Positions 18,969-33,495 of a stretch of 63,217 nucleotides of DNA are shown in pieces. The notes under the pieces were generated by a model. That model did no database searches and was not told where the DNA came from. It was given only the letters and a program-made list of their open reading frames with translations. How positions within the stretch are numbered: position 1 is the first letter of the stretch; each line of letters begins with the position of its first letter. The translations under genes and the position numbers were made by a program. Source of the DNA: a virus; the IMG/VR virus record IMGVR_UViG_3300021379_000848, positions 1 through 63,217 of that record; one strand, written 5' to 3'.

Positions 18969-19008
18969 GTTTTATTTTATCAATCATAGTTCGTGTTCGT
19001 TTTGTAAG
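18969..19008 (-). promoter_or_regulatory. Early promoter-like element 1
   Basis: Minus-strand CTTACA, 7 nt, CACG, 10 nt, GATAAA. Ends about 30 bp before the 54-residue gene and ssb. Confidence 0.75.
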
Positions 19009-19016
19009 CATTTAAT

Positions 19017-19106
19017 TTATTTTGTGAAATATGCTATTGTTAATGAAACTATTGCTAATATGCACCACCAAAATAAAAAGGTTCCAATTCCTTTTTCTTT
19101 GCTCAT
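19017..19106 (-). CDS. 29-residue single-span membrane peptide
   Basis: The ATG overlaps the stop of the exonuclease gene (ATGA) and the frame ends just before promoter element 1. After MSKEKGIG the peptide is one hydrophobic helix (TFLFWWCILAIVSLTIAYF) ending in TK. Function unknown. The exact stop/start overlap and membrane pattern make it more than a chance frame. Confidence 0.5.
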   Translation of the reverse strand: MSKEKGIGTFLFWWCILAIVSLTIAYFTK

Positions 19107-19834
19107 AACACTTCTGTTTTAAAATATTGATTAGGATCAAATTCAGTATCTCTAACAAACATATCGTATGCGATACTAGCTTCTGAAACTTTATTCTCGC
19201 CTCTTGCATAAAAATCAGGAGAGCATTCAAATAACCTTATTTGATGTGTCTTCTTACAAATAGCAATGTATAGCATCTCATAACCGAACAAAGACGAATA
19301 TATATAAGCTTGACTATCGTAATTGTATTTTTTAGCACTATACCTGAAATTTTCAATATCAGAAGTAGTCTTCAAATCTATTACGAGCTTTTCATCGTGA
19401 TTAATTATATCAGCTTTACCTTTCCATAAATTGTTGGCTAATTCACCAATAGAAGGAACTTCATATTCTACGTTGCCATTTCTAATTAGATCATGTACTA
19501 CATTGTTCCTTAATAACTTTTCAGTTAATAAATTGGTTAGATCTACTTCTTTTTGTAATAAAGCCATTTCACCTCCAGTAGCTTCTTTGTATATCTTATT
19601 GTTCCGAGTAGGAGTATCGATAATTTTATATCTACCTAATTTTTCAGGTTCTAAAATAGCTGTATGAAAATAACCTCCTATAAGTAAGTTAGGTGTTTTT
19701 TCTGTAGGTTTACCAAAGCTAGTTGGATCAGTCAATAACTTACCGATATCTGAATTACTTAAATAATTTCTACCAAAATCGCCATAATAGTTATTATCAT
19801 CCCTTAGCTTTTCTATAATTTCTTCTCTAGTCAT
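19103..19834 (-). CDS. PD-(D/E)XK recombination exonuclease (RecE/Cas4-like)
   Basis: 243 residues. The C-terminal half carries the nuclease core: G-K-A-D (WKGKADIINHD), the D-x-K strand (LVIDLKTTSD) and the Q-x-x-x-Y helix (SQAYIYSSLFG). Earlier are SNSDIGKLL and LLIGGYFHTAILEPE, typical of phage exonucleases with an N-terminal substrate-recognition part (S-x-S-x-I...G...H). With the ERF annealase encoded 3 bp upstream it forms a classic exonuclease/annealase pair for single-strand annealing recombination. Confidence 0.85.
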   Translation of the reverse strand: MTREEIIEKLRDDNNYYGDFGRNYLSNSDIGKLLTDPTSFGKPTEKTPNLLIGGYFHTAILEPEKLGRYKIIDTPTRNNKIYKEATGGEMALLQKEVDLTNLLTEKLLRNNVVHDLIRNGNVEYEVPSIGELANNLWKGKADIINHDEKLVIDLKTTSDIENFRYSAKKYNYDSQAYIYSSLFGYEMLYIAICKKTHQIRLFECSPDFYARGENKVSEASIAYDMFVRDTEFDPNQYFKTEVL

Positions 19835-19837
19835 ATA

Positions 19838-20377
19838 TTAGAGCTTTTTTAATTCAGCTTCCAATTCTTTACTGAAGTTATATTTAGATTTAATAGCTTC
19901 TAATGTACCACCTTTCTTGATGTAATCAACAGCTTTCTTGAATTTCTCGTCGTTTTTATCTGTGATACTCGCTTTAGTTACTTGCTTACCATGTGTGTTT
20001 GTAGCGTCGCTATCGGCTGTATCGTCAATTAAAAACAAGTTACCTAAAGCATATTTTTTAGCATATGAAGATGCACTACCAAATTTTTGAGGTAAATTCA
20101 TACCTCTTTGATCCATATCAACCCCTACAACAGCATTAGCAATGATTTCATCTTCACCGTCTGTTAGTATTGCCTGAGAAGTTAATATACACATATCGTT
20201 AACAGTAGATAAACTTTCTTCAATTCTTAAAGATAAACTATGTTCTTTGAGAAAAGGTTTGGAAGCTTCTAAAATATCTTCCGCAGATCGGTAATTGTAC
20301 TTTCCAAAAGAGTTGTATCTACTCTTTTTTGCTTTTAATCCTACTTGGATTTTACTTAATTTTTCATTTAATTTCAT
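19838..20377 (-). CDS. erf: ERF-family single-strand annealing recombinase
   Basis: 179 residues with the ERF core: YNSFGKYNYRSAEDILEASK, DEIIANAVVGVDMDQRGMNL and the signature KFGSASSYAKKYALGNLFLI followed by DDTADSDA. A Lys-rich helical tail ends the chain. It anneals complementary strands during replication-coupled recombination and circularisation. It lies 3 bp upstream of its partner exonuclease gene. Confidence 0.9.
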   Translation of the reverse strand: MKLNEKLSKIQVGLKAKKSRYNSFGKYNYRSAEDILEASKPFLKEHSLSLRIEESLSTVNDMCILTSQAILTDGEDEIIANAVVGVDMDQRGMNLPQKFGSASSYAKKYALGNLFLIDDTADSDATNTHGKQVTKASITDKNDEKFKKAVDYIKKGGTLEAIKSKYNFSKELEAELKKL

Positions 20378-20417
20378 ATATATAATATTACGTGTTTACT
20401 ATTTATTTTAACTTAAC

Positions 20418-21176
20418 TTAAAGATAATCAAGCACTTGTTCCGGTGGAACGTTTTCTATTAGCTTGGTTATTGCCTCTCTTTTTATTTGAGAAACTCTGA
20501 CAAATCCACTTTCCATAGTCATACCTAATTTATTAGCGATCTCTTTAGCGGGCACTCTGTCGCAATCTAACCCATAAGACATTCTCACAATATCATACTC
20601 TTTCTTAGTTAAATACTTATTCATGATACCTAATAAATAAACGTTTAACATGTTCGTATTGTAAATTTTTCTTGTGTCTTCGATTTCAAATATTTTATCT
20701 TCACTATTTGCAGCTAGAGCATCAGTGCTTTCAAATACACTATTGAAAAACATTTCGGTTATTTTCTGATCTTGACCATTGTTTTTACGTATCTCAATTA
20801 ACTTGTGTTCTGGAATTTTTATGCTTCCTCTATTGATATCAATTGCTCTTCTGATAGCTCCCTTAATTCTTTTAGATACAAAAGACTTCATTCTATTTTC
20901 AGGATCAGGAGATTCCATGACAATATCCCAGTCTAATTTATCTACTGCAGCTACTAAACCTAAACTACCTTCTTGTATTAAGTCATTTATACTTAACACA
21001 CCTGAAGCTTGATCTGACGTAGAAAACTTTCTTGCTATAGTTTCGACGAGTGGCAAGAAGAATATTACCAGTTCATCTCTACTATATTCATCCCACATTT
21101 TGCCTTCTAAACGACCAATACTCTGCTCTTTATCTTTTTTATACCTTACGTAGTTTTGTATATTGTATTTTTTCAT
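20418..21176 (-). CDS. Phage-encoded sigma-70-type RNA polymerase sigma factor
   Basis: 252 residues. Region 2 is clear (NDLIQEGSLGLVAAVDKLDW; core-binding and -10 recognition surface, followed by FVSKRIKGAIRRAIDINRG). A region 3-like linker follows (SIKIPEHKLIEIRK). Region 4 carries LTKKEYDIVRMSYGLDC, AKEIANKLG and VSQIKREAITKL. No region 1.1 is present. It should bind host core RNA polymerase and switch it to phage promoters, most likely middle or late ones. The start overlaps the DUF5675-like gene stop (ATGA). Confidence 0.9.
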   Translation of the reverse strand: MKKYNIQNYVRYKKDKEQSIGRLEGKMWDEYSRDELVIFFLPLVETIARKFSTSDQASGVLSINDLIQEGSLGLVAAVDKLDWDIVMESPDPENRMKSFVSKRIKGAIRRAIDINRGSIKIPEHKLIEIRKNNGQDQKITEMFFNSVFESTDALAANSEDKIFEIEDTRKIYNTNMLNVYLLGIMNKYLTKKEYDIVRMSYGLDCDRVPAKEIANKLGMTMESGFVRVSQIKREAITKLIENVPPEQVLDYL

Positions 21177-21616
21177 AAAACTTCTACTATTTCTAACTCA
21201 ACAATTGCATTTTTTTCTGAAATTAAACAGTTATTAAAAGATTTAATAGCATTTTTACTGTTTTTTAAATCAAAAATTTTATCTCCATTTATATCTTGAA
21301 GTCTATCACCAAGAGAAATACAACCGTTTAACTGAGAAACAAAGTTTGCAGGGTGAAATTTACATTCAGTTCTACCTTCAACTCCGTATATTTCCCATAA
21401 GCTCTTATCGAATTTTGGAGAGTATTCATATTTACACTCGAAAATTCCAGTAGGAATACTACTGATCATTTTTTCATTGTTTAACCAACCGCGTTCTAAA
21501 CTTAAGGATGCAAATACAGGAGCATTGTTTCCGTCAAAAACGGTACATCTACCATAAGTGTAGCCCTCTGTAACTTTAAAACGTTCAATTAAAATTTTAA
21601 ATTCACTTTTTTTCAT
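21173..21616 (-). CDS. DUF5675-like protein (possible cell-wall or lysis-associated)
   Basis: 147 residues following the DUF5675 pattern: ILIERFKVTEGYTYGRCTVF, SIPTGIFECKYEYSPKFDKS, a short turn and a Gly-Cys motif (LNGCISLGDRL, compare E-G-C-I-L-x-G in the family). The family recalls L,D-transpeptidase-like barrels. No enzyme in this window is a better endolysin candidate, but its early-operon position beside the sigma gene argues against simple late lysis. Biochemical role unproven. It is preceded by a tiny membrane-peptide gene. Confidence 0.65.
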   Translation of the reverse strand: MKKSEFKILIERFKVTEGYTYGRCTVFDGNNAPVFASLSLERGWLNNEKMISSIPTGIFECKYEYSPKFDKSLWEIYGVEGRTECKFHPANFVSQLNGCISLGDRLQDINGDKIFDLKNSKNAIKSFNNCLISEKNAIVELEIVEVL

Positions 21617-21622
21617 TTTTTT

Positions 21623-21736
21623 TTACTTATACAAATAGGTTAATAATTTTGCAATACATACTACTGGTATTGCTACTATGGCACAGGCCCATAAAAATGA
21701 GACTATCCCGTCAATTACTCTGTTTCCTTTTTCCAT
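21623..21736 (-). CDS. 37-residue single-span membrane peptide
   Basis: The ATG lies 22 bp inside the 3' end of the upstream HTH gene and the stop is 7 bp before the DUF5675-like gene. The peptide begins MEKGNRVIDGIVSFLWACAI and continues VAIPVVCIAKLLTYLYK, one membrane helix with a basic C-terminus. A pinholin-like or partner role for the neighbour is possible, but nothing in the sequence proves it. Confidence 0.55.
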   Translation of the reverse strand: MEKGNRVIDGIVSFLWACAIVAIPVVCIAKLLTYLYK

Positions 21737-22362
21737 TGTTTTAGATCTTTATTTAATAATTCTTTTTCTCTTTTTAATTCCTCTGTTAAATTTCTATTTA
21801 TAGTTCTAGATGAAACATTTAAATGTGTCGCTAACTTTTTTATTGTTATCTTCTCATGCATCTCATGAATGTATAGCATTGTTTCGTAAACATCATCTGG
21901 ATCAATTGTTTTTTTTCTACCAAAAAAGCTACCTACTATTTTCAGTTTTTCTGTTATACTTAAATTACAACTATCCTTAAATATAATTTTTCTAAGTTTA
22001 TTACGAGGAGGTTCTTCTAAATCACTCATATAAACGTCATAAACCATTTTATTAAGCACATCTCCATATACATTAAAAGTTACAAATCCATACTCTTTAT
22101 TTGAAAGCATTTTAGCCAGCTCTAAGAAGCTATCAGGGTCCAGCTTAGGGTTTAAGTACCATAACACCAAAAGATGCCATTTAAGTGATTTAAACGTATT
22201 TACCTTAGCCTTACTTTTAAACAAATCGTAGTACTCGTATGTCCCTTCTTTGTAATAAGCTCCCCAATAATATACTTCATCGGGTTTATCGTTGATTGGA
22301 TCTCGTCTATATACTATCCGATGTTTAACTAAATAAGAAAAGTCACGTTCAAATTGAGGCAT
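21715..22362 (-). CDS. Helix-turn-helix protein, 215 residues
   Basis: The N-terminal 130 residues are globular with many aromatic residues (YLVKHRIVYRR, YYWGAYYKEGTYEYYDL). Residues about 165-200 form a helix-turn-helix (EKITIKKLATHLNVSSRTIN, then RNLTEELKREKELLN). This resembles replication initiators or transcription factors of Bacteroidetes phages, where a domain comparing to DNA-binding replication proteins is joined to an HTH. It heads the sigma-ERF-exonuclease gene group, translationally coupled to a 47-residue gene (TAATG). Confidence 0.65.
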   Translation of the reverse strand: MPQFERDFSYLVKHRIVYRRDPINDKPDEVYYWGAYYKEGTYEYYDLFKSKAKVNTFKSLKWHLLVLWYLNPKLDPDSFLELAKMLSNKEYGFVTFNVYGDVLNKMVYDVYMSDLEEPPRNKLRKIIFKDSCNLSITEKLKIVGSFFGRKKTIDPDDVYETMLYIHEMHEKITIKKLATHLNVSSRTINRNLTEELKREKELLNKDLKQWKKETE

Positions 22363-22505
22363 TAGTCCTTTACTTTATTTATATAACGCCCTTGTGTCGC
22401 ATAATATTCCCACTCTGAAATATCAATGTCTCTTAACATATGTTGGATCCAATCAAAATCATAATAGTCAAGATCGTTAATTAATGATTCTTTTACTTTT
22501 CCCAT
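22362..22505 (-). CDS. 47-residue acidic protein
   Basis: Starts MGKVKESLINDLDYYDFDWI and continues QHMLRDIDISEWEYYATQG. The stop shares bases with the HTH gene start. Acidic and aromatic; no family recognised. Confidence 0.55.
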   Translation of the reverse strand: MGKVKESLINDLDYYDFDWIQHMLRDIDISEWEYYATQGRYINKVKD

Positions 22506-22508
22506 TAC

Positions 22509-22733
22509 TCATAACTTTTGTATTTCTTCTTTTACTTGTCGCCAATAATTTAATTTAGCTTGTAAATCCCAACTTTCGTATTTTGGATAAAATAGTTCTA
22601 ATTGCTTTACAATCTCATCAACAGATACTAAAGCACATCGTTTGGCTTTATTTTTATTATCATTTTCATTGTAAAAAGGCAACAGTGGACTAAAAATCTC
22701 TACTAATCTCTTTGCTTCTTCTTTTGGTGTCAT
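22509..22733 (-). CDS. Hypothetical 74-residue protein
   Basis: Helical protein beginning MTPKEEAKRLVEIFSPLLPF, with CALVSVDEIVKQLEL and a Trp-rich end (YESWDLQAKLNYWRQVKEEI). This pattern is common in small Bacteroidetes phage proteins that take part in unknown early functions. The ATG overlaps the stop of the upstream RIGNYV gene. Confidence 0.65.
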   Translation of the reverse strand: MTPKEEAKRLVEIFSPLLPFYNENDNKNKAKRCALVSVDEIVKQLELFYPKYESWDLQAKLNYWRQVKEEIQKL

Positions 22734-23077
22734 TACTCTTTAAATTTTAATTCTTCACCTGTTAAAGCAAAGTACAGGTTTTGTAGTTGGTGAACGTATT
22801 TAATATGAAAATCATTGTGCTCAAAACCACTCAGATATTCGAAAATATCTACATCACTCTTTAGGTAATAAAACGAATCATCCCACGCTTTATGTTTCTT
22901 AAACCCAAACTTCAACAACCATTCTTCTGTTATTGGGATAGGATAAAGATGGTTTGTGTCTGACAAATCTTTTACCGAAACCTTTACAAAGTCCCTAAAA
23001 ATAATTTTTTCATCAACTAAATTAATGTCATCAAAAGGGTAAACATAATTCCCAATTCTTAGTTCTGTTGCTTTCAT
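22733..23077 (-). CDS. RIGNYV-family protein, copy 1
   Basis: 114 residues starting MKATELRIGNYVYPFD. PIPITEEWLLKFGFKK lies in the middle and YVHQLQNLYFALTGEEL at the C-terminus. The same three blocks occur in the next gene upstream, so the two are tandem paralogues. The family is frequent in Bacteroidetes phages and prophages with no known function. The middle part differs completely between copies. Confidence 0.8.
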   Translation of the reverse strand: MKATELRIGNYVYPFDDINLVDEKIIFRDFVKVSVKDLSDTNHLYPIPITEEWLLKFGFKKHKAWDDSFYYLKSDVDIFEYLSGFEHNDFHIKYVHQLQNLYFALTGEELKFKE

Positions 23078-23080
23078 AAT

Positions 23081-23482
23081 CTATTGTTGTATTTTTAATT
23101 CCTCACCTGTCAAAGCAAAATATAAATTTTGTAGTTGGTGAATGTATTTGATGTCTTTACAAACAACTCTTCCATTACAAGTCAATTCAATAGTTGGGTT
23201 CTTAAAATAAATATCAGACCAAAGTGATATATCTAAATTATCATCCACATAAAGAGAATATAACTTACGTTCTTCTTTCTTAAAACCAAACTTCAACAAC
23301 CATTCTTTTGTTATTGGGATAGGAGTTATTTTATTAATTTTACGTGGAAATCCAATACTATCTTCAAAGTAACCTAATTCAACATCCCAATCATTTCGTC
23401 CTTCGATAGATGTCTGCAATACAATCACTTTTTGTGAAACATAATTAACATAATTCCCAATTCTTAGTTCTTTAACCTTCAT
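23081..23482 (-). CDS. RIGNYV-family protein, copy 2
   Basis: 133 residues, paralogue of the adjacent downstream gene: MKVKELRIGNYVNYVS, PIPITKEWLLKFGFKK and YIHQLQNLYFALTGEELK are shared. The variable middle (RKLYSLYVDDNLDISLWSD) is not. Tandem duplication followed by divergence of the central segment. Confidence 0.8.
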   Translation of the reverse strand: MKVKELRIGNYVNYVSQKVIVLQTSIEGRNDWDVELGYFEDSIGFPRKINKITPIPITKEWLLKFGFKKEERKLYSLYVDDNLDISLWSDIYFKNPTIELTCNGRVVCKDIKYIHQLQNLYFALTGEELKIQQ

Positions 23483-23510
23483 CTTTTAAATATTTTAAAT
23501 TTAACATTAT

Positions 23511-23581: not shown

Positions 23582-23587
23582 GTGCTA

Positions 23588-23878: not shown

Positions 23879-23888
23879 AATCAGTACT

Positions 23889-24600: not shown

Positions 24601-24795
24601 TTAGTCGTTATATAGTGCTTCTTCAATATCATATGCTAAATCTTCAACAATTTCAGTTGCTAATTCAACTATTTGTATTAAACCGCGTCTTTCATATTCG
24701 TTTAGATCGTGAATTTTACCGTCATGTATAGCATTCACACAATCTAATAGATCTCTTGACGTGTTTTCAAATCTGCAATAACTCATATTTGCCAT
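24601..24795 (-). CDS. MSYCRFENT-family small protein
   Basis: 64 residues. The N-terminal MSYCRFENTSRDLLDCVNAI is shared by many small phage proteins. The C-terminus is acidic and helical (ATEIVEDLAYDIEEALYND). Start at MANM or at the internal MSYC (24786) is open. It has its own promoter element 26 bp upstream. Function unknown. Confidence 0.75.
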   Translation of the reverse strand: MANMSYCRFENTSRDLLDCVNAIHDGKIHDLNEYERRGLIQIVELATEIVEDLAYDIEEALYND

Positions 24796-24820: not shown

Positions 24821-24855
24821 ACTTTATCAATTATAATTCGTATTTAGCTTGTAAA
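24821..24855 (-). promoter_or_regulatory. Early promoter-like element 2
   Basis: Minus-strand TTTACA, 7 nt, TACG, 10 nt, GATAAA. Overlaps the last codons (LQAKYEL) of the upstream gene; drives the MSYCRFENT gene. Confidence 0.65.
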
Positions 24856-25124
24856 CCTAATAATTTAACTCTATTCGCTGTTTCTATATAACACTCTCTT
24901 TTATAAGATCCTCTTTTGAAGTCTATAAAATTACCTGAAAAATAATCACCTGGTTCATTGCCATGAACTATCGCGAAACTATTCACTTTCCCATCTTGGA
25001 AATAAACCCCTAAGTCAAAGTTATTTCCTTTACTATCAGTATAAGGTCCTAAGTACATACAATAACTCCACATCCATTCTCTTGCTGATGGATAATATAG
25101 ATCAACTTCGTACAATGTTTCCAT
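24831..25124 (-). CDS. Hypothetical 97-residue protein
   Basis: Starts METLYEVDLYYPSAREWMWS. Aromatic and beta-like (NNFDLGVYFQDGKVNSFAIV; GDYFSGNFIDFKRGSY). Its C-terminal codons double as promoter element 2. Own promoter (element 3) upstream. No family recognised. Confidence 0.65.
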   Translation of the reverse strand: METLYEVDLYYPSAREWMWSYCMYLGPYTDSKGNNFDLGVYFQDGKVNSFAIVHGNEPGDYFSGNFIDFKRGSYKRECYIETANRVKLLGLQAKYEL

Positions 25125-25150: not shown

Positions 25151-25190
25151 CGTTTATTTTATCAATTATTATTCGTGTTCGGACTGTAAG
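25151..25190 (-). promoter_or_regulatory. Early promoter-like element 3
   Basis: Minus-strand CTTACA, 7 nt, CACG, 10 nt, GATAAA. Lies between the 57-residue and 97-residue genes. Confidence 0.75.
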
Positions 25191-25370: not shown

Positions 25371-25982
25371 TTAGTGAAATATTAATCCTACTTTTTTGTT
25401 TTTACTAAACCATTTGGTTGCGAATAGATCAACCTTCGATGCATTCACAAATCCCGCTAAGTTTAGCTCCTCTTCTGATTTAAAAATGTCAGTGAATCGA
25501 TCATTTTGCTTATCAATCAGGTCAATTTGTTTACCGCTATTAGAAAAGATCACGTCGAAATTATCTGGTAGATCAGTTTCTTTAAACAATTGCACCATGT
25601 TAGTGTAGCTATAAAACTTTACATTCGGGTTGTGTATAGCAATCTCTATCCACTTTTGCAAATACGCTCTAGAATAGTAGTCGCCAGAGTCATGAACTCG
25701 CACATAGTCTGGTTTTTTCTTTGCAATATCAGCATTCATAGCGTCAACAAACTTATCTGTTTTACTTAGTTCATAACGTTTTTCAAAAGCTGGTTTTACA
25801 TTAGACCATATATACGCACCTTTACGGGCATAACAGAACTTTACACATTCTTTAGCCATAGGACAGATCAGTTTACCTGATTGTGATTTGTAAGCAGGTA
25901 AGCCAAAGTTGAATACTTTAACTCCTAATTCTTTAGAAGTTTTCTTTAACTTTGAATTCTGTGTTAATAGTGATATGGCCAT
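25371..25982 (-). CDS. Gp88-like protein (mycobacteriophage gp88 family)
   Basis: 203 residues. A Cys-rich N-terminal part (KLICPMAKECVKFCYARKGA) is followed by ADIAKKKPDYVRVHDSGDYYS, KWIEIAIHNPNVKFYSYTNM and DVIFSNSGKQIDL. These are the hallmarks of the phage gp88 family, whose members may be metal-binding or radical-type enzymes of unknown substrate. The Cys triad C-x(5)-C-x(3)-C and the barrel-like repeats support a metal cofactor, but this is inference. Start overlaps the upstream stop (TAATGG). Confidence 0.75.
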   Translation of the reverse strand: MAISLLTQNSKLKKTSKELGVKVFNFGLPAYKSQSGKLICPMAKECVKFCYARKGAYIWSNVKPAFEKRYELSKTDKFVDAMNADIAKKKPDYVRVHDSGDYYSRAYLQKWIEIAIHNPNVKFYSYTNMVQLFKETDLPDNFDVIFSNSGKQIDLIDKQNDRFTDIFKSEEELNLAGFVNASKVDLFATKWFSKNKKVGLIFH

Positions 25983-26329
25983 TACTCTGAATATTTAAAT
26001 AATGTTGTAATATCTTGCATGATCTTATCTGTAATGCCAGCTGTATTAAGAAAATCAATACTGCACACTGAAATTTTATTATCCCAGTTTAGCTCTAATT
26101 CATATTCGAAATCCTGCTCTTCAAAGCGATAACTATCTATAGAATCTTCAATAGTCAGCTCTAACTTTTTCATAAAAGAGTCACTAACTACAGGTTTTTC
26201 TAGTTCTTCGATTAAGACTTCTAGTGCACTAATTTTAGTGTTAAAATCTTTTTTCTGCTGCTCAATTGCTTGGGTTAATTCTTCGTAAGTTGGTTTTAAT
26301 TCTTGATTTGTAATGTTTGTTGTTTCCAT
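25982..26329 (-). CDS. Hypothetical acidic coiled-coil protein, 115 residues
   Basis: N-terminal coiled coil (YEELTQAIEQQKKDFNTKIS, ALEVLIEELEKP) followed by an acidic globular part (EEQDFEYELELNWDNKISVC). Own promoter element upstream. No family recognised. Confidence 0.65.
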   Translation of the reverse strand: METTNITNQELKPTYEELTQAIEQQKKDFNTKISALEVLIEELEKPVVSDSFMKKLELTIEDSIDSYRFEEQDFEYELELNWDNKISVCSIDFLNTAGITDKIMQDITTLFKYSE

Positions 26330-26361: not shown

Positions 26362-26405
26362 TATTCAATTGTATTATCAATGTTAGATCGTGCTCAGTCT
26401 GTAAA
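26362..26405 (-). promoter_or_regulatory. Early promoter-like element 4
   Basis: Minus-strand TTTACA, 7 nt, CACG, 10 nt, GATAAT, ending TTGAAT. About 35 bp before the 115-residue gene. Confidence 0.75.
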
Positions 26406-27570: not shown

Positions 27571-27884
27571 TTTTTTCTATTATTTTTAATTGTTTCTTTA
27601 AATTCTTTTACTGGGAAATACCCTACACCTATAAAACTAATTTCAGGATCCCATCTATACTGTATTCTAACATACACCCTGCCGTCTTTTTTCAACGTAA
27701 AATTATTGAATTCAGTAGCTTCAGGTATAGATAACTGCACTAACTCAAGAGCAACGTCAATAATGTTTTTATACTCACTTTGTATTTCTTTAGGTAAATA
27801 CTCGTATCCTTTGTTTTGAAGGGTAAGCTCAGGAAAAGCTTTGTAAATTCCCATTAACAAATCACCGTTATTCGCTCTTCTCAT
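27567..27884 (-). CDS. Hypothetical 105-residue protein
   Basis: The frame reaches 27971, but MRRANNGDLLMGIYKAFPEL at 27884 reduces the overlap with the upstream gene to 17 bp. Later segments: IDVALELVQLSIPEATEFNN and YVRIQYRWDPEISFIGVGYF. No family recognised. Confidence 0.6.
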   Translation of the reverse strand: MRRANNGDLLMGIYKAFPELTLQNKGYEYLPKEIQSEYKNIIDVALELVQLSIPEATEFNNFTLKKDGRVYVRIQYRWDPEISFIGVGYFPVKEFKETIKNNRKK

Positions 27885-28146
27885 AAGTTTTCTTTTTAAA
27901 TGCATCACCAAAACGGATATCATGTGTACTATAAGCATTAAATGCTTTGTCTCGATGAGGGATAGGAACACTATTAAAAATAGTAGCTATCTCACTTATA
28001 GTAAGTTCACCCCACGAATATACTCTGCGAGAAACGATATCTTGTAATATACCGGGGTACTCCACAGCTAATACTTCTACTACGTCGTCAATTAAGACGT
28101 CAGTTAAAAAAGAATTTAATGTAATTTCAGTTTGAATTGTTTTCAT
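27868..28146 (-). CDS. Hypothetical 92-residue protein
   Basis: Starts MKTIQTEITLNSFLTDVLID; contains RVYSWGELTISEIATIFNSV and a basic C-terminus. First gene of a three-gene group behind promoter element 5. Confidence 0.65.
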   Translation of the reverse strand: MKTIQTEITLNSFLTDVLIDDVVEVLAVEYPGILQDIVSRRVYSWGELTISEIATIFNSVPIPHRDKAFNAYSTHDIRFGDAFKKKTYEKSE

Positions 28147-28164: not shown

Positions 28165-28209
28165 TTATTCAATTAATTTATCAGTCAGTGATCGTGTTTA
28201 GATTGTAAG
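28165..28209 (-). promoter_or_regulatory. Early promoter-like element 5
   Basis: Minus-strand CTTACA, 7 nt, CACG, 10 nt, GATAAA, ending TTGAAT. Overlaps the last codons (LNTITD) of the upstream gene. Confidence 0.8.
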
Positions 28210-28552: not shown

Positions 28553-28574
28553 AATTATAGTTTTTATTTGTTAG

Positions 28575-28662
28575 TGGACGTGGCAGGAATCGAACCTGCG
28601 TTTTGAAGCATTTGGACTCGGTAACCTGTTATTTATTCGCTTCGTCTAACCATTTCACGCCC
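28575..28662 (-). ncRNA. tRNA-like domain (acceptor stem with G3-U70, T-arm), non-canonical
   Basis: On the minus strand GGGCGTG (28662..28656) pairs fully with CACGTCC plus discriminator A (28582..28575), including a third-pair G-U, the alanine identity element of tRNA-Ala and tmRNA. The T-arm is GCAGG TTCGATT CCTGC. The D-arm is reduced to a loop (AAATGGTTAGAC, similar to the tmRNA D-loop). GAAGC/GCTTC closes a 29-nt loop instead of an anticodon arm. CCA is not encoded (CTA follows). It is therefore not a decoding tRNA; a tmRNA-type or mimic domain is more likely. Confidence 0.55.
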
Positions 28663-28965
28663 AATTGCAGCACCTACCTTCAATACTATCCGTCGATAGC
28701 GTCCTACTTTGGGTGGCATTACGGTATCGTAGAATACCTGTGCTGCATTGAGAAGCGGATAGACCTGGAATGTTAGGGATGCTCCCGGATTACACTAAGG
28801 AATGCACGTCATTTACTAGTATGCCCTGACTTATAACCTCAGTGTACGCTACCTAGACTTACACCCTTTTCTCTGTTTATACTATCTTTCACCGTCATCG
28901 AGCCGTTTCTCTCATCCCGCTAAGGAATTACGCCTTTAATCCGGTTTCCAGACTTCTTCTCAGTT
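28575..28965 (-). ncRNA. Long structured RNA with tRNA/tmRNA-like 3' end
   Basis: About 390 nt without a plausible reading frame, with its own promoter (element 6) immediately upstream. The base composition is clearly less AT-rich than the flanking gaps. Helices include TGCAGCAC/GTGCTGCA (28740..28747 with 28666..28673), GGTAT/ATACC (28723..28738), CTATC/GATAG (28686..28699), CACTGAGG/CCTTAGTG and GTGTA/TACAC. It ends in an acceptor stem plus T-arm (next entry). Length and 3' end recall tmRNA, but no tag frame and no 5' acceptor strand near 28965 were found. Group I intron hallmarks are also not satisfied. Class unresolved; RNA identity itself is well supported. Confidence 0.65.
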
Positions 28966-28972
28966 TTATTTT

Positions 28973-29017
28973 TTATTCAATTAATTTATCATTTAACGAT
29001 CGTGCTCAGTTTGTAAG
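28973..29017 (-). promoter_or_regulatory. Early promoter-like element 6 (drives the structured RNA)
   Basis: Minus-strand CTTACA, 7 nt, CACG, 10 nt, GATAAA, ending TTGAAT. Encodes the last residues (LQTEHDR) of the upstream gene and points directly into the RNA. Confidence 0.8.
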
Positions 29018-29208
29018 CACTCTAATATATATTCATACACCTGCTCTTCTATTTTATTAGAAGCCAATCTAAGCTCCAACGCTTCCCTATCTACTGCTCC
29101 GATCAGATTATATGTTAACTCATAGTCAATTCTCTGACGATCAAATAAAACACCGGAAAGTTTAGAAACAATCTTCGCTATAGCCCTCTCTTTTATCTCG
29201 CTATTCAT
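28993..29208 (-). CDS. Hypothetical 71-residue protein
   Basis: MNSEIKERAIAKIVSKLSGV, ELTYNLIGAVDREALELRLA. Helical. Its C-terminal codons lie in promoter element 6. It overlaps the upstream gene by 8 bp. Confidence 0.65.
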   Translation of the reverse strand: MNSEIKERAIAKIVSKLSGVLFDRQRIDYELTYNLIGAVDREALELRLASNKIEEQVYEYILECLQTEHDR

Positions 29209-29446
29209 CTTCTACCATCGATTTAAAATCAAAATCCCTAGTATACTTCAAACGTCGTTTAGCTTTAGCAAGTAACTGCTCGTAAAGCTCTACTTCGGTC
29301 ATGTATAGCAATTCCATCTTATCGCTATCATCATAGTAAAGATCATCCTCCCAAGATAACATGTCCGCTACATAATCTTCAACCACAAATATGCACTTAG
29401 AAACCACTCGGTCAATCACCTCATTTATATCTTCTGATTTATCCAT
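29201..29446 (-). CDS. Hypothetical acidic 81-residue protein
   Basis: Asp/Glu-rich, helical (MDKSEDINEVIDRVVSKCIF, VEDYVADMLSWEDDLYYDDS) with a more basic end (KAKRRLKYTRDFDF). Own promoter (element 7). Confidence 0.65.
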   Translation of the reverse strand: MDKSEDINEVIDRVVSKCIFVVEDYVADMLSWEDDLYYDDSDKMELLYMTEVELYEQLLAKAKRRLKYTRDFDFKSMVEDE

Positions 29447-29473
29447 ATTAATCTATTTTTTTATATCTAATTA

Positions 29474-29517
29474 ACTTCATTTATTTTATCACATGCTTAT
29501 CGTATCCAGATCGTAAG
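29474..29517 (-). promoter_or_regulatory. Early promoter-like element 7
   Basis: Minus-strand CTTACG, 7 nt, TACG, 10 nt, GATAAA, ending ATGAAG. Precedes the 81/71-residue gene pair. Confidence 0.7.
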
Positions 29518-29780
29518 TACTACAAACTCCGTAATACCAACAATGTCAACGACAAACCTATCCGTATCCGCACTCCAATTCCAAACAAACCAAAGGATAT
29601 AAAATATTTACCCAATAATTCACTATAAGGGGTGGTTACCCAGTATGACAAAGTGTCAGTGACAAAATGTCGTGGTAGTGGAGCACTCGGTAATGAGTTT
29701 CAAAAATGCGACACTAGCCTGTTATATAATATATAGTAGCACCCAATTGTCGCACTTTTTACGCTCTTTTTTTACTCTGA
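29518..29780. other. Gene-free C-rich region, origin or control candidate
   Basis: About 260 bp without a gene. The left part is C-rich and G-poor on the plus strand (CCAATTCCAAACAAACC at 29574..29590). Then come an AT stretch, clustered TGACA/TGTCA words (29647..29672) and the GCGACA palindrome. The same order (promoter element, C-rich segment, AT stretch, palindrome) is found at 33.5-33.94 kb. Confidence 0.45.
29708..29753. promoter_or_regulatory. GCGACA...TGTCGC palindromic element, copy 1
   Basis: 46 bp with perfect 6-bp outer arms (7 bp with flanking T/A) and inner TTATATAATA and ATAGTAG words shared with copies at 33900 and 56507. Likely a protein-binding operator or promoter. Confidence 0.7.
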
Positions 29781-30365
29781 TTACTTATCTAGAATGGTGA
29801 GTACTACGCCAACTATGTCACTTAATTCTGCATATTTTCGTCTATCACTGTCAGCTGTATATTTAAATACACCCATACTGTAAAGACTAGTTCTTTTTTC
29901 ACCTCTTCTTCTTTGTAGTTCGCTGAGTAATTCTTGTAAATCCCATATTTTACCTGTTGATATCCATCCCTTGTGAGGTGAATCACTAGCAACATCGTTA
30001 AGTCTTTTTAGCTCTCCACGGATGAGGTCATCTAGGGTTTCTAGATCAGCATTGAATAAATCGGTAGGTACAGATTTTCTCTTCAGTTTTATACAGTAAT
30101 CTACTATTGATTCTTCGAAATCGTCGAAATCGTCTTTAAATAGATCTTTGTATAGCTCTTTAAATTTGCCGTATTTCACCTGTTTACCGCCTAGGTAGTA
30201 GGTTACGTCGCCATCTGGATCTTCTATGGAAGTATAACCAGGAACTACGCTTACTATGCCTCCGAATAGGTGGACTTCAGCTTTTATAAATTCATTTACT
30301 TGTATTTCGTAATCTGAAGAGAACCTTATATAGTCCTCGTGGTGGTGTCTTTTAATTAATTTCAT
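29781..30365 (-). CDS. Hypothetical 194-residue protein
   Basis: Contains EDYIRFSSDYEIQVNEFIKA, EVHLFGGIVSVVPGYTSIED and ELKRLNDVASDSPHKGWIST, followed by WDLQELLSELQRRR. Mixed fold; no family recognised. First gene behind promoter element 8 and last before the C-rich gap. Confidence 0.65.
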   Translation of the reverse strand: MKLIKRHHHEDYIRFSSDYEIQVNEFIKAEVHLFGGIVSVVPGYTSIEDPDGDVTYYLGGKQVKYGKFKELYKDLFKDDFDDFEESIVDYCIKLKRKSVPTDLFNADLETLDDLIRGELKRLNDVASDSPHKGWISTGKIWDLQELLSELQRRRGEKRTSLYSMGVFKYTADSDRRKYAELSDIVGVVLTILDK

Positions 30366-30383
30366 TGTTATTGTTTTTGTTAC

Positions 30384-30422
30384 ATTAATATTATCGATCG
30401 GTGGTCGTGTTTAGTTTGTAAG
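30384..30422 (-). promoter_or_regulatory. Early promoter-like element 8
   Basis: Minus-strand CTTACA, 7 nt, CACG, 10 nt, GATAAT. Contains the stop of the upstream gene (ILTN). Confidence 0.8.
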
Positions 30423-30599
30423 AATTTGTTTCATTAAATCCTCTATTAACATTTCTTCAGTTTCGCCGTCTTCTAGATCGCAGCAGCACTCTACAAAGTC
30501 AGTTACTGATTTTAATAAATCTTCTTTACCCATGTAGTTAGACTCGAATCTAAAGGCATTTAAGGTATCTTCATTCCAATAAAATTTCTTATTTTCCAT
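30411..30599 (-). CDS. Hypothetical acidic 62-residue protein
   Basis: MENKKFYWNEDTLNAFRFES then FVECCCDLEDGETEEMLIED. Ends within promoter element 8. Third gene of the group behind element 9. Confidence 0.6.
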   Translation of the reverse strand: MENKKFYWNEDTLNAFRFESNYMGKEDLLKSVTDFVECCCDLEDGETEEMLIEDLMKQILTN

Positions 30600-30613
30600 A
30601 ATATTGATAATTT

Positions 30614-30874
30614 TTAAGCAGGAGATAATTCCCAGCTAACTATTTCTACCTCAACCCAGCCTTTTTCACTGTGGTTTCTATATACTCCTAATCCGTCTTT
30701 AGTTAGAATTTCTACTAACCTTCCGGCTGCTCGCCATAGATCAGGGTCAGGTGTTTCATCATGTTCGTGGTCGTACATTATGTCGCCTCTACACTGGTAG
30801 AACACATCGTCTACGTCATTCTCTACTAGTTCAAAATCCCAACCGTTTACGGTAATATTTTCACATAATTCCAT
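30614..30874 (-). CDS. Hypothetical acidic 86-residue protein
   Basis: MELCENITVNGWDFELVEND, GDIMYDHEHDETPDPDLWRA, VEVEIVSWELSPA. Acidic with several His. No family recognised. Confidence 0.65.
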   Translation of the reverse strand: MELCENITVNGWDFELVENDVDDVFYQCRGDIMYDHEHDETPDPDLWRAAGRLVEILTKDGLGVYRNHSEKGWVEVEIVSWELSPA

Positions 30875-30876
30875 AT

Positions 30877-31080
30877 CTACTTAGTATTTAATAATTGATT
30901 CTTCATTTCCTCTAAGGCTAATTTATACCCAAAGTTCTTAGACAACTGCATTAATAAGAAGTCAGCTGATCCGTGGTTAGCTTTCGTGAATTCCTCGAGA
31001 TACTCCGCGGTAGGAGTCGCTACAATTCCTCTATCTAACATATTAAATTGTTCAGTTAAAAAGGTTTCTAATGTTTTCAT
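30877..31080 (-). CDS. Hypothetical 67-residue protein
   Basis: MKTLETFLTEQFNMLDRGIV, ADFLLMQLSKNFGYKLALEE. Helical. First gene behind promoter element 9; 2 bp before the next gene. Confidence 0.65.
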   Translation of the reverse strand: MKTLETFLTEQFNMLDRGIVATPTAEYLEEFTKANHGSADFLLMQLSKNFGYKLALEEMKNQLLNTK

Positions 31081-31094
31081 TGTTATTATTTTTT

Positions 31095-31138
31095 GTTACA
31101 CATATATTATCAATCAAAGTTCGTGTTTATTCTGTAAG
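31095..31138 (-). promoter_or_regulatory. Early promoter-like element 9
   Basis: Minus-strand CTTACA, 7 nt, CACG, 10 nt, GATAAT. TGTATAGCA abuts its upstream edge (31139..31147). Confidence 0.8.
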
Positions 31139-31327
31139 TGCTATACACGGTGACCTCATCTACCGATCAATCTCTAAATCTAAATACGGTGTAGGACGGA
31201 GTCTACTCTTCCGGTCTTATCTCAGAACCAGGCCATATAGTTTATCAAAAAGAAACCGTGTTTACGGTGCAGGTGCTATACACCCTGGGGGATTAGGTGC
31301 ATACACTTCAGTTTTTTATATTTAACA
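31139..31327. other. Gene-free stretch with repeated 3'-flank sequence
   Basis: 190 bp between two minus-strand genes. Holds two copies of the TGCTATACA word (31139, 31274) and a 41-bp segment (31194..31234) closely matching 32647..32687, both able to fold as small hairpins. No convincing coding frame on either strand. Confidence 0.5.
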
Positions 31328-31483
31328 TTATACATATTTCTTATTCTCGTACTGAAGTTCATTATCGTAAAACTCAAAAGCCTCATCATCACCATTGCTA
31401 TCAGGACTCTCTAAGTAATACTCAAACACTTCTCTAATTAACGTTAGTTCATCATCTGTAAATCTTCTTGTATAGTATTTCAT
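31328..31483 (-). CDS. Hypothetical acidic 51-residue protein
   Basis: MKYYTRRFTDDELTLIREVF then EYYLESPDSNGDDEAFEFYD. Follows a 46-residue gene by 20 bp in the group behind element 10. No family recognised. Confidence 0.6.
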   Translation of the reverse strand: MKYYTRRFTDDELTLIREVFEYYLESPDSNGDDEAFEFYDNELQYENKKYV

Positions 31484-31503
31484 ATCATTTGTTTTAATTG
31501 TTT

Positions 31504-31644
31504 TTAGTCTGATATTTTTTCAACGATCACAGCGTTAAGAGCCTTGGATATGATCCTAGCATGTTTCCAGCTGTAACAGTTGGCGTAAAACTTTCCTGAT
31601 CTGTCCCTGAATAGGAACGTCATCTCAGGTTTTTCTAAATTCAT
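31504..31644 (-). CDS. Hypothetical 46-residue protein
   Basis: MNLEKPEMTFLFRDRSGKFY then ANCYSWKHARIISKALNAVI. Compact alpha/beta pattern. First gene behind element 10. Confidence 0.6.
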   Translation of the reverse strand: MNLEKPEMTFLFRDRSGKFYANCYSWKHARIISKALNAVIVEKISD

Positions 31645-31661
31645 AATATATCTATTTAATT

Positions 31662-31706
31662 GTTATTCACTTATGTTATCGATCAATGATCGTATTTGTT
31701 CTGTAT
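31662..31706 (-). promoter_or_regulatory. Early promoter-like element 10
   Basis: Minus-strand ATACAG, TACG, then GATAAC at standard spacing, ending AGTGAAT. Abuts a TGTATAGCA word (31706..31714). Confidence 0.7.
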
Positions 31707-31735
31707 GTATAGCACCCCGAGGGGCGACCCAAGGC

Positions 31736-32056
31736 CTACTCAGTAGCAGGCTCTAGGTCAATTCTCTCAATCACTAAGTGACGTACATTTGTTGGCATGT
31801 CTGTTGACTGTGACCAGTATCCGCGCTTATTCCAGCATGGCATTAGGTTTAACTTTGGAAGCATTGCTTCGAGTACATCGTCGTGATTGTACGTAATCTG
31901 TTGATTTTTGTTGTTCACGAAGGTGATGATTTGGTTTCGACCCAGCCAGCCTTTTCGGACTACGAAGTTTTTTCTCGTGATCGGTGGGAAAATTGCCGCC
32001 AATTCTTTTTTACTTAGTTTTGCGATTGCTTTTGTAATTGCTTCTTGATTTTTCAT
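31736..32056 (-). CDS. Hypothetical basic 106-residue protein
   Basis: ITKAIAKLSKKELAAIFPPI, TRKNFVVRKGWLGRNQIITF, CWNKRGYWSQSTDMPTNVRH. Basic alpha/beta protein; possibly nucleic-acid binding. Own promoter (element 11). Confidence 0.65.
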   Translation of the reverse strand: MKNQEAITKAIAKLSKKELAAIFPPITRKNFVVRKGWLGRNQIITFVNNKNQQITYNHDDVLEAMLPKLNLMPCWNKRGYWSQSTDMPTNVRHLVIERIDLEPATE

Positions 32057-32091
32057 GATAAATTGTTTTTAATTGTTATTATTTATTTTTG

Positions 32092-32136
32092 TTATTCACT
32101 TATGTTATCGTTTATTCGTCGTGTTTGTTTTGTAAG
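32092..32136 (-). promoter_or_regulatory. Early promoter-like element 11
   Basis: Minus-strand CTTACA, 7 nt, CACG, 10 nt, GATAAC, ending AGTGAAT. Confidence 0.8.
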
Positions 32137-32138
32137 AC

Positions 32139-32348
32139 TTAGAATCTTTCATAGTCTTTATGATCTAACACGTGATAGTACGAGTACCCTTTATGGTTGA
32201 ATTTCGGACGTTCATATTCTTTGTAATACTTGTTTGGTATTTCAGATATTCTGAACCCTATGTAGTAACAGAAGTCGTCTTTAAATTTCATCTTTTTTGA
32301 TCTTGGTGTTTTTGTTCTTGAGTGGTTGTGTCCTACTACTAAATCCAT
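32139..32348 (-). CDS. Hypothetical 69-residue protein
   Basis: MDLVVGHNHSRTKTPRSKKM, then KFKDDFCYYIGFRISEIPNK and GYSYYHVLDHKDYERF. The internal ATG at 32291 (MKFKDDF) is an alternative start. Own promoter (element 12). Confidence 0.6.
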   Translation of the reverse strand: MDLVVGHNHSRTKTPRSKKMKFKDDFCYYIGFRISEIPNKYYKEYERPKFNHKGYSYYHVLDHKDYERF

Positions 32349-32379
32349 ATTTAATTGTTTTTAATTATTATTATTTTCT

Positions 32380-32424
32380 TTATTCACTTATATTATCAAC
32401 TTTACTTCGTATCCAGTTTGTAAG
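32380..32424 (-). promoter_or_regulatory. Early promoter-like element 12
   Basis: Minus-strand CTTACA, 7 nt, TACG, 10 nt, GATAAT, ending AGTGAAT. Confidence 0.8.
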
Positions 32425-32559
32425 TTAGTAATTTTCTAATATATCTTGTATTGAGTCGTTCGTTTTTGGGTGGATCGTATTAATCCAAAACCATTCTACT
32501 TCTTCGTTTGTCGGATTTTTAGATAAAAAATCTAAACATTCTAATTTTAATTCTTTCAT
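32425..32559 (-). CDS. Hypothetical 44-residue protein
   Basis: MKELKLECLDFLSKNPTNEE then VEWFWINTIHPKTNDSIQDI. Stops at the first base before element 12 and begins behind element 13. Confidence 0.6.
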   Translation of the reverse strand: MKELKLECLDFLSKNPTNEEVEWFWINTIHPKTNDSIQDILENY

Positions 32560-32578
32560 TTTGTTATTGTTATTTTCT

Positions 32579-32623
32579 TTATTCGCTTATATTATCAATA
32601 GTACCCCGTGTTTACTCTGTAAG
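32579..32623 (-). promoter_or_regulatory. Early promoter-like element 13
   Basis: Minus-strand CTTACA, 7 nt, CACG, 10 nt, GATAAT, ending AGCGAAT. Two tandem TGTATAGCA words (32624..32641) abut it. Confidence 0.8.
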
Positions 32624-32693
32624 TGCTATACATGCTATACACTCCAGGTCGGAGTCTACTCTTCCGATCCTATTTCAAAATCAGGCTAAAATT

Positions 32694-32721
32694 ATCCAGA
32701 CCAAAAGCTTGATCTGGATAG
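32694..32721. terminator. Hairpin, possible terminator of the 48-residue gene
   Basis: TATCCAGA pairs with TCTGGATA around a 12-nt loop, just after the stop at 32736 in minus direction and followed there by AATTTT. A longer T run lies on the plus-strand side. Confidence 0.6.
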
Positions 32722-32735
32722 ATATTTTTTTAGGT

Positions 32736-32882
32736 TTAGTTATCTATAGCTTGTTCTATCAGGCTTTTTAATAAGTCTAAAGCTTCTGGGCCTTTTTTAG
32801 TACCTTTTGATATATGATCCCATAAGATATCTTCTAAGCAGTAAAATTGATCTTTGTTTAGTTTAAAATTTTTAGTTTGCAT
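32736..32882 (-). CDS. Hypothetical 48-residue protein
   Basis: MQTKNFKLNKDQFYCLEDIL then WDHISKGTKKGPEALDLLKS. Helical. Single gene between element 14 and a hairpin. Confidence 0.6.
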   Translation of the reverse strand: MQTKNFKLNKDQFYCLEDILWDHISKGTKKGPEALDLLKSLIEQAIDN

Positions 32883-32912
32883 TTTAAATTGTTTTAAATT
32901 GTTATTTATTTT

Positions 32913-32957
32913 TCATTCAACTATATTATCAAAGTAAGACCGTGCCTAGACTGTAAG
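32913..32957 (-). promoter_or_regulatory. Early promoter-like element 14
   Basis: Minus-strand CTTACA, 7 nt, CACG, 10 nt, GATAAT, ending TTGAAT. TGTATAGCA plus a one-base variant (TGTACAGCA) abut it; the CGCC-AAC-GGCG hairpin lies just upstream. Confidence 0.8.
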
Positions 32958-33057
32958 ATGCTATACATGCTGTACACGCCGTTGGCGTACGTATATAACG
33001 GGTCAACCCCGAGCCCGTGTAAGGACCCAGGGAAACCCTGAATGGATAAAATGCATG

Positions 33058-33258
33058 TTATGATTCCAGATCCGGCTCAGTTATATGCCTCCAGGCCGAA
33101 GACTTAAGCCGAATGTTTTCAAGCTTTAGGTTTGTGTTCTTGAAGTCCAGCTCATCGGCTAGCTCAGCCAGTTTGTTGAGGTTTTCGATCTGGGTCGCAT
33201 CGTCAAGATGCTTATATAGTTCATGGAATAATTCTCCTACTTGTCTGTTGTACCACAT
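33058..33258 (-). CDS. Hypothetical coiled-coil protein, 66 residues
   Basis: MWYNRQVGELFHELYKHLDD, ATQIENLNKLAELADELDFK: an uninterrupted amphipathic helix with leucine heptads. Second gene behind element 15. The following gap (to element 14) holds two GC-rich hairpins. Confidence 0.65.
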   Translation of the reverse strand: MWYNRQVGELFHELYKHLDDATQIENLNKLAELADELDFKNTNLKLENIRLKSSAWRHITEPDLES

Positions 33259-33277
33259 AATTTATTGTTTTAAGGTG

Positions 33278-33436
33278 TTAATCGCGGATGAATATGCCGT
33301 TATACATGCTCCCGAACAAATTGTCATATAGGTCCTGGATTTCTTCGGTCGTGAACCCGGATAGGTCAAACTCACAGCCAAATTCTGATTCGATCTCGGC
33401 ACATAGCCACTCGCGTTTTGATGATTTGTAACTCAT
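33278..33436 (-). CDS. Hypothetical acidic 52-residue protein, first early gene
   Basis: MSYKSSKREWLCAEIESEFG then CEFDLSGFTTEEIQDLYDNL. It is the first gene transcribed minus-ward from the junction. Own promoter (element 15) 14 bp upstream. Confidence 0.6.
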   Translation of the reverse strand: MSYKSSKREWLCAEIESEFGCEFDLSGFTTEEIQDLYDNLFGSMYNGIFIRD

Positions 33437-33449
33437 AATTATTATATTC

Positions 33450-33495
33450 TTGATTCACCTATATTATCAAAACCAGGCCGTGTCCAGACTGTAAG
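33450..33495 (-). promoter_or_regulatory. Early promoter-like element 15 (outermost)
   Basis: Minus-strand CTTACA, 7 nt, CACG, 10 nt, GATAAT, ending GGTGAAT. TGTATAGCA (33497..33505) lies upstream. It is the first early promoter leaving the head-to-head junction. Confidence 0.8.

What the first reader, a model, noticed from the sequence alone, without database searches (positions are those of the whole stretch)
18969..33495. Fifteen near-identical promoters in front of tiny early genes
The layout CTTACA, 7 nt, CACG, 10 nt, GATAAT/GATAAA, usually followed by TGAAT, recurs at 19008, 24855, 25190, 26405, 28209, 29017, 29517, 30422, 31138, 31706, 32136, 32424, 32623, 32957 and 33495 (upstream edges). 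All read minus-ward, each 15-40 bp before a gene. Spacing is rigid and three blocks are conserved, while the linkers vary freely. It is neither the E. coli -35/-10 pair nor the usual Bacteroidetes TTTG/TAnnTTTG pair, so it may be a specific early promoter class with an extra central CACG contact.
Basis: seen in the sequence. Interest (0 to 1): 0.75.

Follow-up and report, generated by a model that had tools for sequence, protein, structure and literature searches.

The report
Phage sigma factor's own promoter set
Fifteen near-identical DNA signals in this marine bacteriophage are almost certainly promoters of a class shared by hundreds of related ocean phages, and wherever a near-complete phage genome has them it also carries a gene for its own sigma factor, the protein that tells RNA polymerase where to start.

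Summary
All 15 sites are real: 15 matches versus 0.33 expected, all minus-strand, fixed spacing. In sigma-70 numbering (inferred) they read TTACARnCYRRRYACGR (-38 to -22), N9, GATAA(T) (-12 to -7): a -35 / 18-bp spacer / -10 layout plus a TACGA/CACGA block inside the spacer. The phage encodes a 252-aa sigma-70-family protein at 20418-21176(-). Across 172 distinct relatives of that protein, 908 sites lie on the sigma gene's strand, 4 on the other, 0 in reversed DNA. A scan by motif alone led back to the sigma gene in 18 of 18 contigs of 55 kb or more. Eight complete sigma-less relatives lack the sites. Start codons spike exactly 6 nt after the -10 hexamer, as expected if +1 lies there, so these are very probably promoters. 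Most likely reader: host core RNA polymerase carrying the phage sigma (about 0.65). Unsettled: how sigma is first made, since it lies downstream of these promoters, and residue-level sigma/DNA covariation is weak. The central CACG element is dispensable in some relatives. No transcript data exist.

The parts
18976..19008 (-). promoter site 1 (before gene 18455-18772 / replication genes)
24823..24855 (-). promoter site 2 (before gene 24601-24795)
25158..25190 (-). promoter site 3 (before gene 24831-25124)
26373..26405 (-). promoter site 4 (before gene 25982-26329)
28177..28209 (-). promoter site 5 (before gene 27868-28146)
28985..29017 (-). promoter site 6, before a non-coding stretch with a tRNA-like 3' end
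29485..29517 (-). promoter site 7 (before gene 29201-29446)
30390..30422 (-). promoter site 8 (before gene 29781-30365)
31106..31138 (-). promoter site 9 (before gene 30877-31080)
31675..31707 (-). promoter site 10 (CATACA variant, before gene 31504-31644)
32104..32136 (-). promoter site 11 (before gene 31736-32056)
32392..32424 (-). promoter site 12 (before gene 32139-32348)
32591..32623 (-). promoter site 13 (before gene 32425-32559)
32925..32957 (-). promoter site 14 (before gene 32736-32882)
33463..33495 (-). promoter site 15 (before gene 33278-33436)
31234..31272 (-). degenerate 16th copy (CTGCACCGTAAACACGG-N9-GATAAA), no gene clearly behind it
   Evidence: seen in sequence
20418..21176 (-). 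phage sigma-70-family protein, 252 aa, proposed reader of the sites
   Evidence: Pfam Sigma70_r2 3.8e-5 and r4 2.8e-4; PDB profile hits to SigA/RpoD/FliA; AlphaFold model matches sigma factors
21715..22362 (-). 215-aa protein with C-terminal helix-turn-helix, neighbour of sigma in most relatives; possible partner regulator
   Evidence: weak Pfam HTH matches; found near sigma in 160 of 164 loci

Best explanation
The sites are promoters of a phage-specific class with a sigma-70-type layout: a -35 hexamer ACARnC (-36 to -31), an 18-bp spacer that holds an accessory TACGA/CACGA block (-26 to -22), a -10 hexamer GATAA(T) (-12 to -7), and +1 about 7 nt after the hexamer. They are most likely read by the host's core RNA polymerase loaded with the sigma factor that the phage encodes at 20418-21176: sigma region 2 would open the GATAAT box and region 4 would hold ACAAAC, so that transcription is redirected to the phage's minus-strand arm (many tiny genes, a tRNA-like RNA, the sigma gene's own operon, replication genes). 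Shown by sequence: the sites, layout, conservation, strand bias, the start-codon spike, the sigma fold, and the two-way co-occurrence. Inferred: the numbering and +1; that this sigma and not the host's binds the sites; the early timing; positive feedback once sigma is made.
For: Sites 15 vs 0.33 expected. The phage protein is a sigma factor by Pfam, PDB profile (SigA 1.6e-10, FliA 1.8e-7) and structure (sigma2 on E. coli sigma70 375-446 at 1.3 A over 72 residues). 172 distinct relatives: 908 sites on the sigma strand, 4 opposite, 0 reversed. Motif-only scan leads to sigma in 31 of 43 contigs and 18 of 18 of 55 kb or more. Eight complete relatives without sigma have no sites. ATG distances spike at exactly 6 nt (53 sites; 2 at 5 nt, 4 at 7 nt), i.e. 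ATG at +1. Eight relatives have the sigma gene itself 6-9 nt behind a site. Host consensus TAnnTTTG (PMC9723704) is hardly above its reversed control in non-coding DNA (285 vs 251) while GATAATA is 815 vs 125. G at -36 occurs only without Tyr at sigma residue 225, the position aligned with R584 of sigma70 (Fisher p 9e-5, not corrected for ancestry or multiple tests).
Against: Bootstrapping: the sigma gene lies downstream of the sites (nearest site usually 1.7-2.9 kb upstream), so something else must start it. Characterised relatives in function (7-11 gp47, phiEco32 gp36) serve middle or late genes (PMC8948821). Residue-level covariation is weak overall; the clade with TATAAT keeps the same sigma region 2.4, and the clade with CACGGACT keeps almost the same recognition helix. 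The clade with TCGAAA in place of TTACAAA (L102, L103, L252) is the one in which the neighbouring HTH gene was not found, which could point to that protein instead. All co-occurrence is within one lineage. No transcript data.
Confidence: 0.65

Rival explanations
1. The sites are early promoters read by host RNA polymerase with a host sigma; the phage sigma is made later and switches on the late plus-strand genes, as T4 gp55 or 7-11 gp47 do.
For: Sigma is encoded at the far end of the site-rich arm, downstream of most sites (867 of 908 sites upstream of sigma within the fetched flanks), the order expected if the sites come first. Known phage sigmas of this kind serve late genes (PMC8948821). 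Conserved AT-rich boxes without the early motif stand before two late genes.
Against: GATAAT/ACAAAC fits neither flavobacterial sigma-A (TAnnTTTG) nor the other described F. psychrophilum motifs. Sigma-less complete relatives of the same host group lack the sites. The late boxes are gene-specific and no common late motif was found. The sigma has region 4, yet the late boxes show no shared -35 element.
Confidence: 0.2
2. A phage activator, for example the HTH protein 21715-22362, binds the upstream block (centred near -30) and recruits a host or phage holoenzyme that reads only the -10 box, as MotA does at T4 middle promoters.
For: Block 1 spans -38 to -22, centred near -30. The HTH gene is next to sigma in 160 of 164 loci. 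The three loci where it was not found have TCGAAA in place of TTACAAA.
Against: Those loci keep ACG and GATAAT sites without the HTH gene, so it is not required for the class. HTH residues covary with the sites no better than sigma residues. The HTH protein has a more likely target, a hairpin overlapping its own start and standing before late operons.
Confidence: 0.08
3. A phage RNA polymerase (virion-borne or single-subunit) reads the whole motif.
For: Rigid spacing over about 35 bp; phages of this broad kind can carry virion polymerases (crAss-like, N4-like; prior knowledge). A 2210-aa virion-arm protein has no Pfam or PHROG match above threshold.
Against: No polymerase motif found in that protein (motif search only, a remote homologue is not excluded). 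-12/-7 and -36/-31 blocks with an 18-bp spacer fit a sigma holoenzyme. A sigma gene accompanies the sites.
Confidence: 0.04
4. The motif is not a promoter but a leader or operator element, for example an RNA signal for translation or a repressor site.
For: No transcript ends are known; the sites stand before small genes.
Against: Start codons pile up exactly where +1 is predicted, which would leave the element outside the mRNA. One site precedes a stretch with no ORF. Nothing else promoter-like was found in this arm.
Confidence: 0.03

Closest known systems
phiEco32-like phage sigma factors (phi32_gp36; 7-11 gp47), PMC8948821
   Same: Podovirus-encoded sigma-like protein that redirects host core RNA polymerase; in 7-11 the cognate promoters are bipartite.
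   Different: 7-11 promoters are GTAAtg-(16)-aCTA before late genes; here ACAAAC-18-GATAAT plus a spacer block, before the minus-arm genes and, in some relatives, sigma itself. Protein relationship to gp36/gp47 not tested.
Flavobacterial sigma-A promoters (TAnnTTTG), PMC9723704
   Same: The presumed hosts' main promoter class; also two-part.
   Different: Sites have GATAAT(A) at -12 to -6, no TTTG at -8 to -5.
T4 gp55 late sigma and T4 middle promoters with MotA (prior knowledge)
   Same: Phage factors that re-aim host polymerase; block 1 is centred near -30 like a MotA box. Weak tblastn matches of the sigma are to Synechococcus phage sigma factors.
   Different: This sigma has both region 2 and region 4 and the sites have a clear -35 block; no MotA homologue identified.
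Elemovirus, Pachyviridae and Pervagoviridae podoviruses of Flavobacteriaceae
   Same: Terminase 31-45% identical, GroEL gene, similar arm layout.
   Different: Records tested (elemoA, elemoD, phi19:3, phi13:2, phi38:1, Calle_2, Gundel_1) have no sigma gene and no sites.

Membership tests
sigma-70 family protein (window 20418-21176) | sigma region 2 (core binding, -10 recognition) | tested here: met
   Pfam 3.8e-5, just under the curated cut-off; PDB profile 1.6e-10; structure 1.3 A over 72 residues to 1sig
sigma-70 family protein (window 20418-21176) | sigma region 4 (-35 recognition) | tested here: met
   Pfam Sigma70_r4 2.8e-4, under cut-off; FliA matched over profile 27-236; Z 12.4 to 1sc5 over 24-244
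sigma-70 family protein (window 20418-21176) | binds core RNA polymerase and starts transcription | not testable with these tools
   needs purified protein
sigma-dependent promoter class | -35 and -10 elements at fixed spacing | tested here: met
   18-bp spacer in all 15 sites and the relatives' sites
sigma-dependent promoter class | start about 7 nt after the -10 element | tested here: inconclusive
   ATG spike at 6 nt fits; no 5' ends mapped
sigma-dependent promoter class | co-occurrence of sites and cognate sigma | tested here: met
   one lineage, so not independent
Bacteroidetes sigma-A promoter | TAnnTTTG -7 box | tested here: not met
   absent from all 15 sites; consensus from PMC9723704
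phiEco32-like sigma system | sequence relationship to phi32_gp36 or 7-11 gp47 | not tested
   tblastn of annotated phages listed only Synechococcus and faecal phage records at E up to 1e-3; no profile comparison made
phage RNA polymerase promoter (N4/crAss/T7 type) | phage-encoded RNA polymerase | tested here: inconclusive
   no motif in the 2210-aa protein and no Pfam or PHROG polymerase in the large proteins scanned; most small genes not scanned
MotA-like activated promoter | activator that binds the upstream block | not testable with these tools
   candidate HTH gene exists, binding unknown

The most novel reading that the evidence does not exclude
A whole lineage of marine Bacteroidetes phages runs its early programme on its own sigma factor from the start (primed by leak or by sigma brought in with the virion), at promoters with a third recognition element inside the spacer (TACGA, -26 to -22) that is read by something other than sigma regions 2 and 4.
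Probability: 0.2. Interest if true: 0.8.

Novelty: new variant of a known kind. Interest (0 to 1): 0.62.

Why it matters
Phage sigma factors with mapped promoters are few. Here is one candidate sigma/promoter system with hundreds of natural variants in ocean viruses, including clades that changed the -12 base, changed the -35 box or lost the spacer element. That makes promoter evolution testable, offers a candidate orthogonal promoter/sigma pair for Bacteroidetes genetics, and lets early genes and probable transcription starts be called directly in uncultured phage genomes.

Tried and rejected
DNA search of annotated phages gave nothing. One pattern search used an 11-base spacer by mistake; it returned only scattered hits and serves as a spacing control. 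Mutual information between sigma residues and motif columns gave no clear winner; an early impression that Asp after NRG in sigma goes with C at -13 did not hold up as specific in clustered data. No host-type TAnnTTTG promoter stood out as the primer of the sigma operon; one intergenic candidate at about 29584(-) is within chance. A common late promoter was sought in six genomes; only two gene-specific AT-rich boxes were found. Polymerase motifs were sought in the 2210-aa protein without success. Literature searches found no description of this promoter or sigma in Bacteroidetes phages, within the open-access library only. Whether the non-coding RNA follows a site in relatives was not clear: 2 of 11 within 250 bp.
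Full report
Observation. The gapped pattern gives 15 matches with at most one mismatch, all minus-strand, against 0.33 expected from shuffles, and none for the reversed pattern. Aligned, they read CTTACARnCYRRRYACGR, a free stretch of about six bases, then an A/T-rich end, TGATAAn and ATAAnTGAAT. The first linker is therefore restricted to purine or pyrimidine at most positions, not free. ATGs lie 24-47 nt after the last base of GATAAn.

What the genome is. The window is an IMG/VR record with a 135-bp end overlap (one mismatch), so it looks like a complete, circularly permuted genome. Its terminase is 70-74% identical to those of many viral contigs, 62% to MW202828, 45% to Flavobacterium elemo phages and 31-38% to Cellulophaga and Tenacibaculum phages, which makes a Bacteroidetes host likely but not shown. 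Genes run in two arms: minus strand 10.6-33.6 kb (tiny genes, sigma, Erf, a DUF3799 nuclease, primase-helicase, thymidylate synthase, ribonucleotide reductase) and plus strand (GroEL, fibres, terminase, structural proteins). All sites are in the minus arm.

A sigma factor in the same arm. Gene 20418-21176(-) matches Sigma70 regions 2 and 4 just under the Pfam cut-offs. A profile of its relatives finds SigA and sigma-28 in the PDB (1.6e-10, 1.8e-7). An AlphaFold model (mean pLDDT 75) places its sigma2 domain on E. coli sigma70 at 1.3 A over 72 residues.

Relatives. Scans with the sigma protein and its alignments returned up to 474 candidates in one scan. From 172 distinct sigma proteins and 2.75 Mb of surrounding DNA, a weight matrix finds 908 sites on the sigma strand, 4 on the other, 0 in reversed DNA; 113 of 117 loci with at least 6 kb upstream of sigma have sites. 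The matrix was trained on these loci, so the count is not blind, but the strand and reversal controls are. The commonest form is TTACAAACTAAATACGA-N8-[TGCA]GATAATATA. In the 124 loci with three or more sites G-12, A-11, T-10, A-9, A-6 and A-27 are fixed and A-8, T-7 and A-28 nearly so; the base at -13 is lineage-specific.

The four exceptions. L340 carries GCAAATnnGCTACGA-N9-GATAA and L343 CTTGCAGATCTATAACGAA-N9-TATAAT, the same layout. L343's relatives L367, L368 and L369 share T-12. L157 and L284 have one and two candidate matches elsewhere on their contigs, close to chance level. A further clade, L377-L379, has CACGGACT at -37 to -30, the same register as ACAAACT with two A-to-G changes, and no ACG at -25. 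L101 has lost ACG at most sites. So the core is the -35 hexamer, 18-bp spacer and -10 hexamer; the central CACG/TACG is an accessory.

Converse test. A scan of IMG/VR with the motif alone, followed by a sigma profile search of whole contigs, found the sigma gene in 31 of 43 contigs, and in all 18 of 55 kb or more; the misses are contigs of 28-52 kb, shorter than a full genome. Eight complete or near-complete sigma-less relatives have neither sigma nor sites. The association runs both ways, but these phages share ancestry, so it is not proof of contact.

Why promoters. 840 of 908 sites are followed within 120 bp by an ATG opening 35 or more codons, against 588 of 908 random positions. The distances have a broad peak at about 15-30 nt and a sharp one at exactly 6 nt (53 sites; 2 at 5 nt, 4 at 7 nt). 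In eight relatives the sigma gene itself starts 6-9 nt after the hexamer. In sigma-70 numbering that is +1, so these would be leaderless mRNAs, which are known in flavobacteria (5.5% in F. psychrophilum, PMC9723704). One window site precedes a stretch with no ORF. The layout and the +1 spike fit a sigma holoenzyme and argue against a single-subunit phage polymerase.

Which sigma. Flavobacterial sigma-A uses TAnnTTTG, and the alternative motifs described for F. psychrophilum do not resemble ours (PMC9723704). In non-coding DNA of the relatives TAnnTTTG is hardly above its reverse, GATAATA far above. Sigma-less relatives show TATATTTG or TATCTTTG before some early genes (two examples, no statistics). 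This favours the phage sigma. Against it stand the bootstrapping problem (sigma is downstream of its own promoters), the late role of other phage sigmas (PMC8948821), and weak residue-level covariation. The one pairing that makes sense in advance, -36 with sigma residue 225 (aligned with R584 of sigma70 through), has Fisher p 9e-5 before any correction for ancestry or for the number of columns looked at. T440 of sigma70 aligns with an invariant arginine, R109, which could read G-12, but the TATAAT clade has the same arginine. The HTH gene next to sigma was not found in the three loci with TCGAAA instead of TTACAAA, so a part for that protein is not excluded. I put the phage-sigma reading at 0.65 and a host-sigma reading at 0.2.

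Verdict. A real and widespread promoter class, undescribed in the literature I could search, tied to a phage sigma factor: a new variant of a known kind of system. The decisive step is in vitro transcription with purified sigma.

Noticed in passing
window 28572-28990 (-); L159 5438-5519, L123 4872-4975, L155 5475-5557: Behind site 29017 lies a non-coding stretch of about 400 nt ending in a tRNA-like domain that matches Rfam tmRNA below its cut-off (35-41 bits) at both ends of the model but with almost no middle, i.e. no tag-ORF room. Similar short hits occur in three relatives. Not called by ARAGORN.
   Followed up: partly
window 29708-29755, 33900-33944, 56507-56553; G001, G006, G016 near late operons; L343, L377-L379 at the HTH gene start: A 42-50-nt inverted element (GTGACAATAGCC..TATATA..GGGGCTAATGTCAC; GCGACA..TGTCGC in the window) stands before late operons and overlaps the start of the HTH gene next to sigma; it was not seen in G015, where that gene was not found either. 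A possible operator of the HTH protein or a terminator.
   Followed up: partly
window, 16 places, 15 of them at 19.3-33.5 kb: The 9-mer TGCTATACA (or its complement) is strongly over-represented, sometimes directly upstream of the promoter sites (31138, 32623, 32957, 33495); 15 copies in G006, 0 in G015 and MW202828.
   Followed up: partly
window 56560-56582 and 53848-53864 (+): Conserved AT-rich boxes (AAACTATTTAATTATATTATATY and TCATATAATATTTTATY) end directly at the ATG of two late genes in several relatives: candidate late, leaderless promoters.
   Followed up: partly
MW202828 (L105), before genes at 44.6-49.9 kb: This sigma-less relative has the palindrome GTGTCGTTAACGACAC before many early genes instead of the motif.
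   Followed up: no
window 1-135 and 63083-63217: 135-bp end overlap with one mismatch: the record, classed as linear, is probably a complete circularly permuted genome.
   Followed up: yes
L104 / G016 about 58331-58970: The sigma reading frame breaks off in region 4 in this contig although eight canonical sites remain: sequencing error or recent loss.
   Followed up: no
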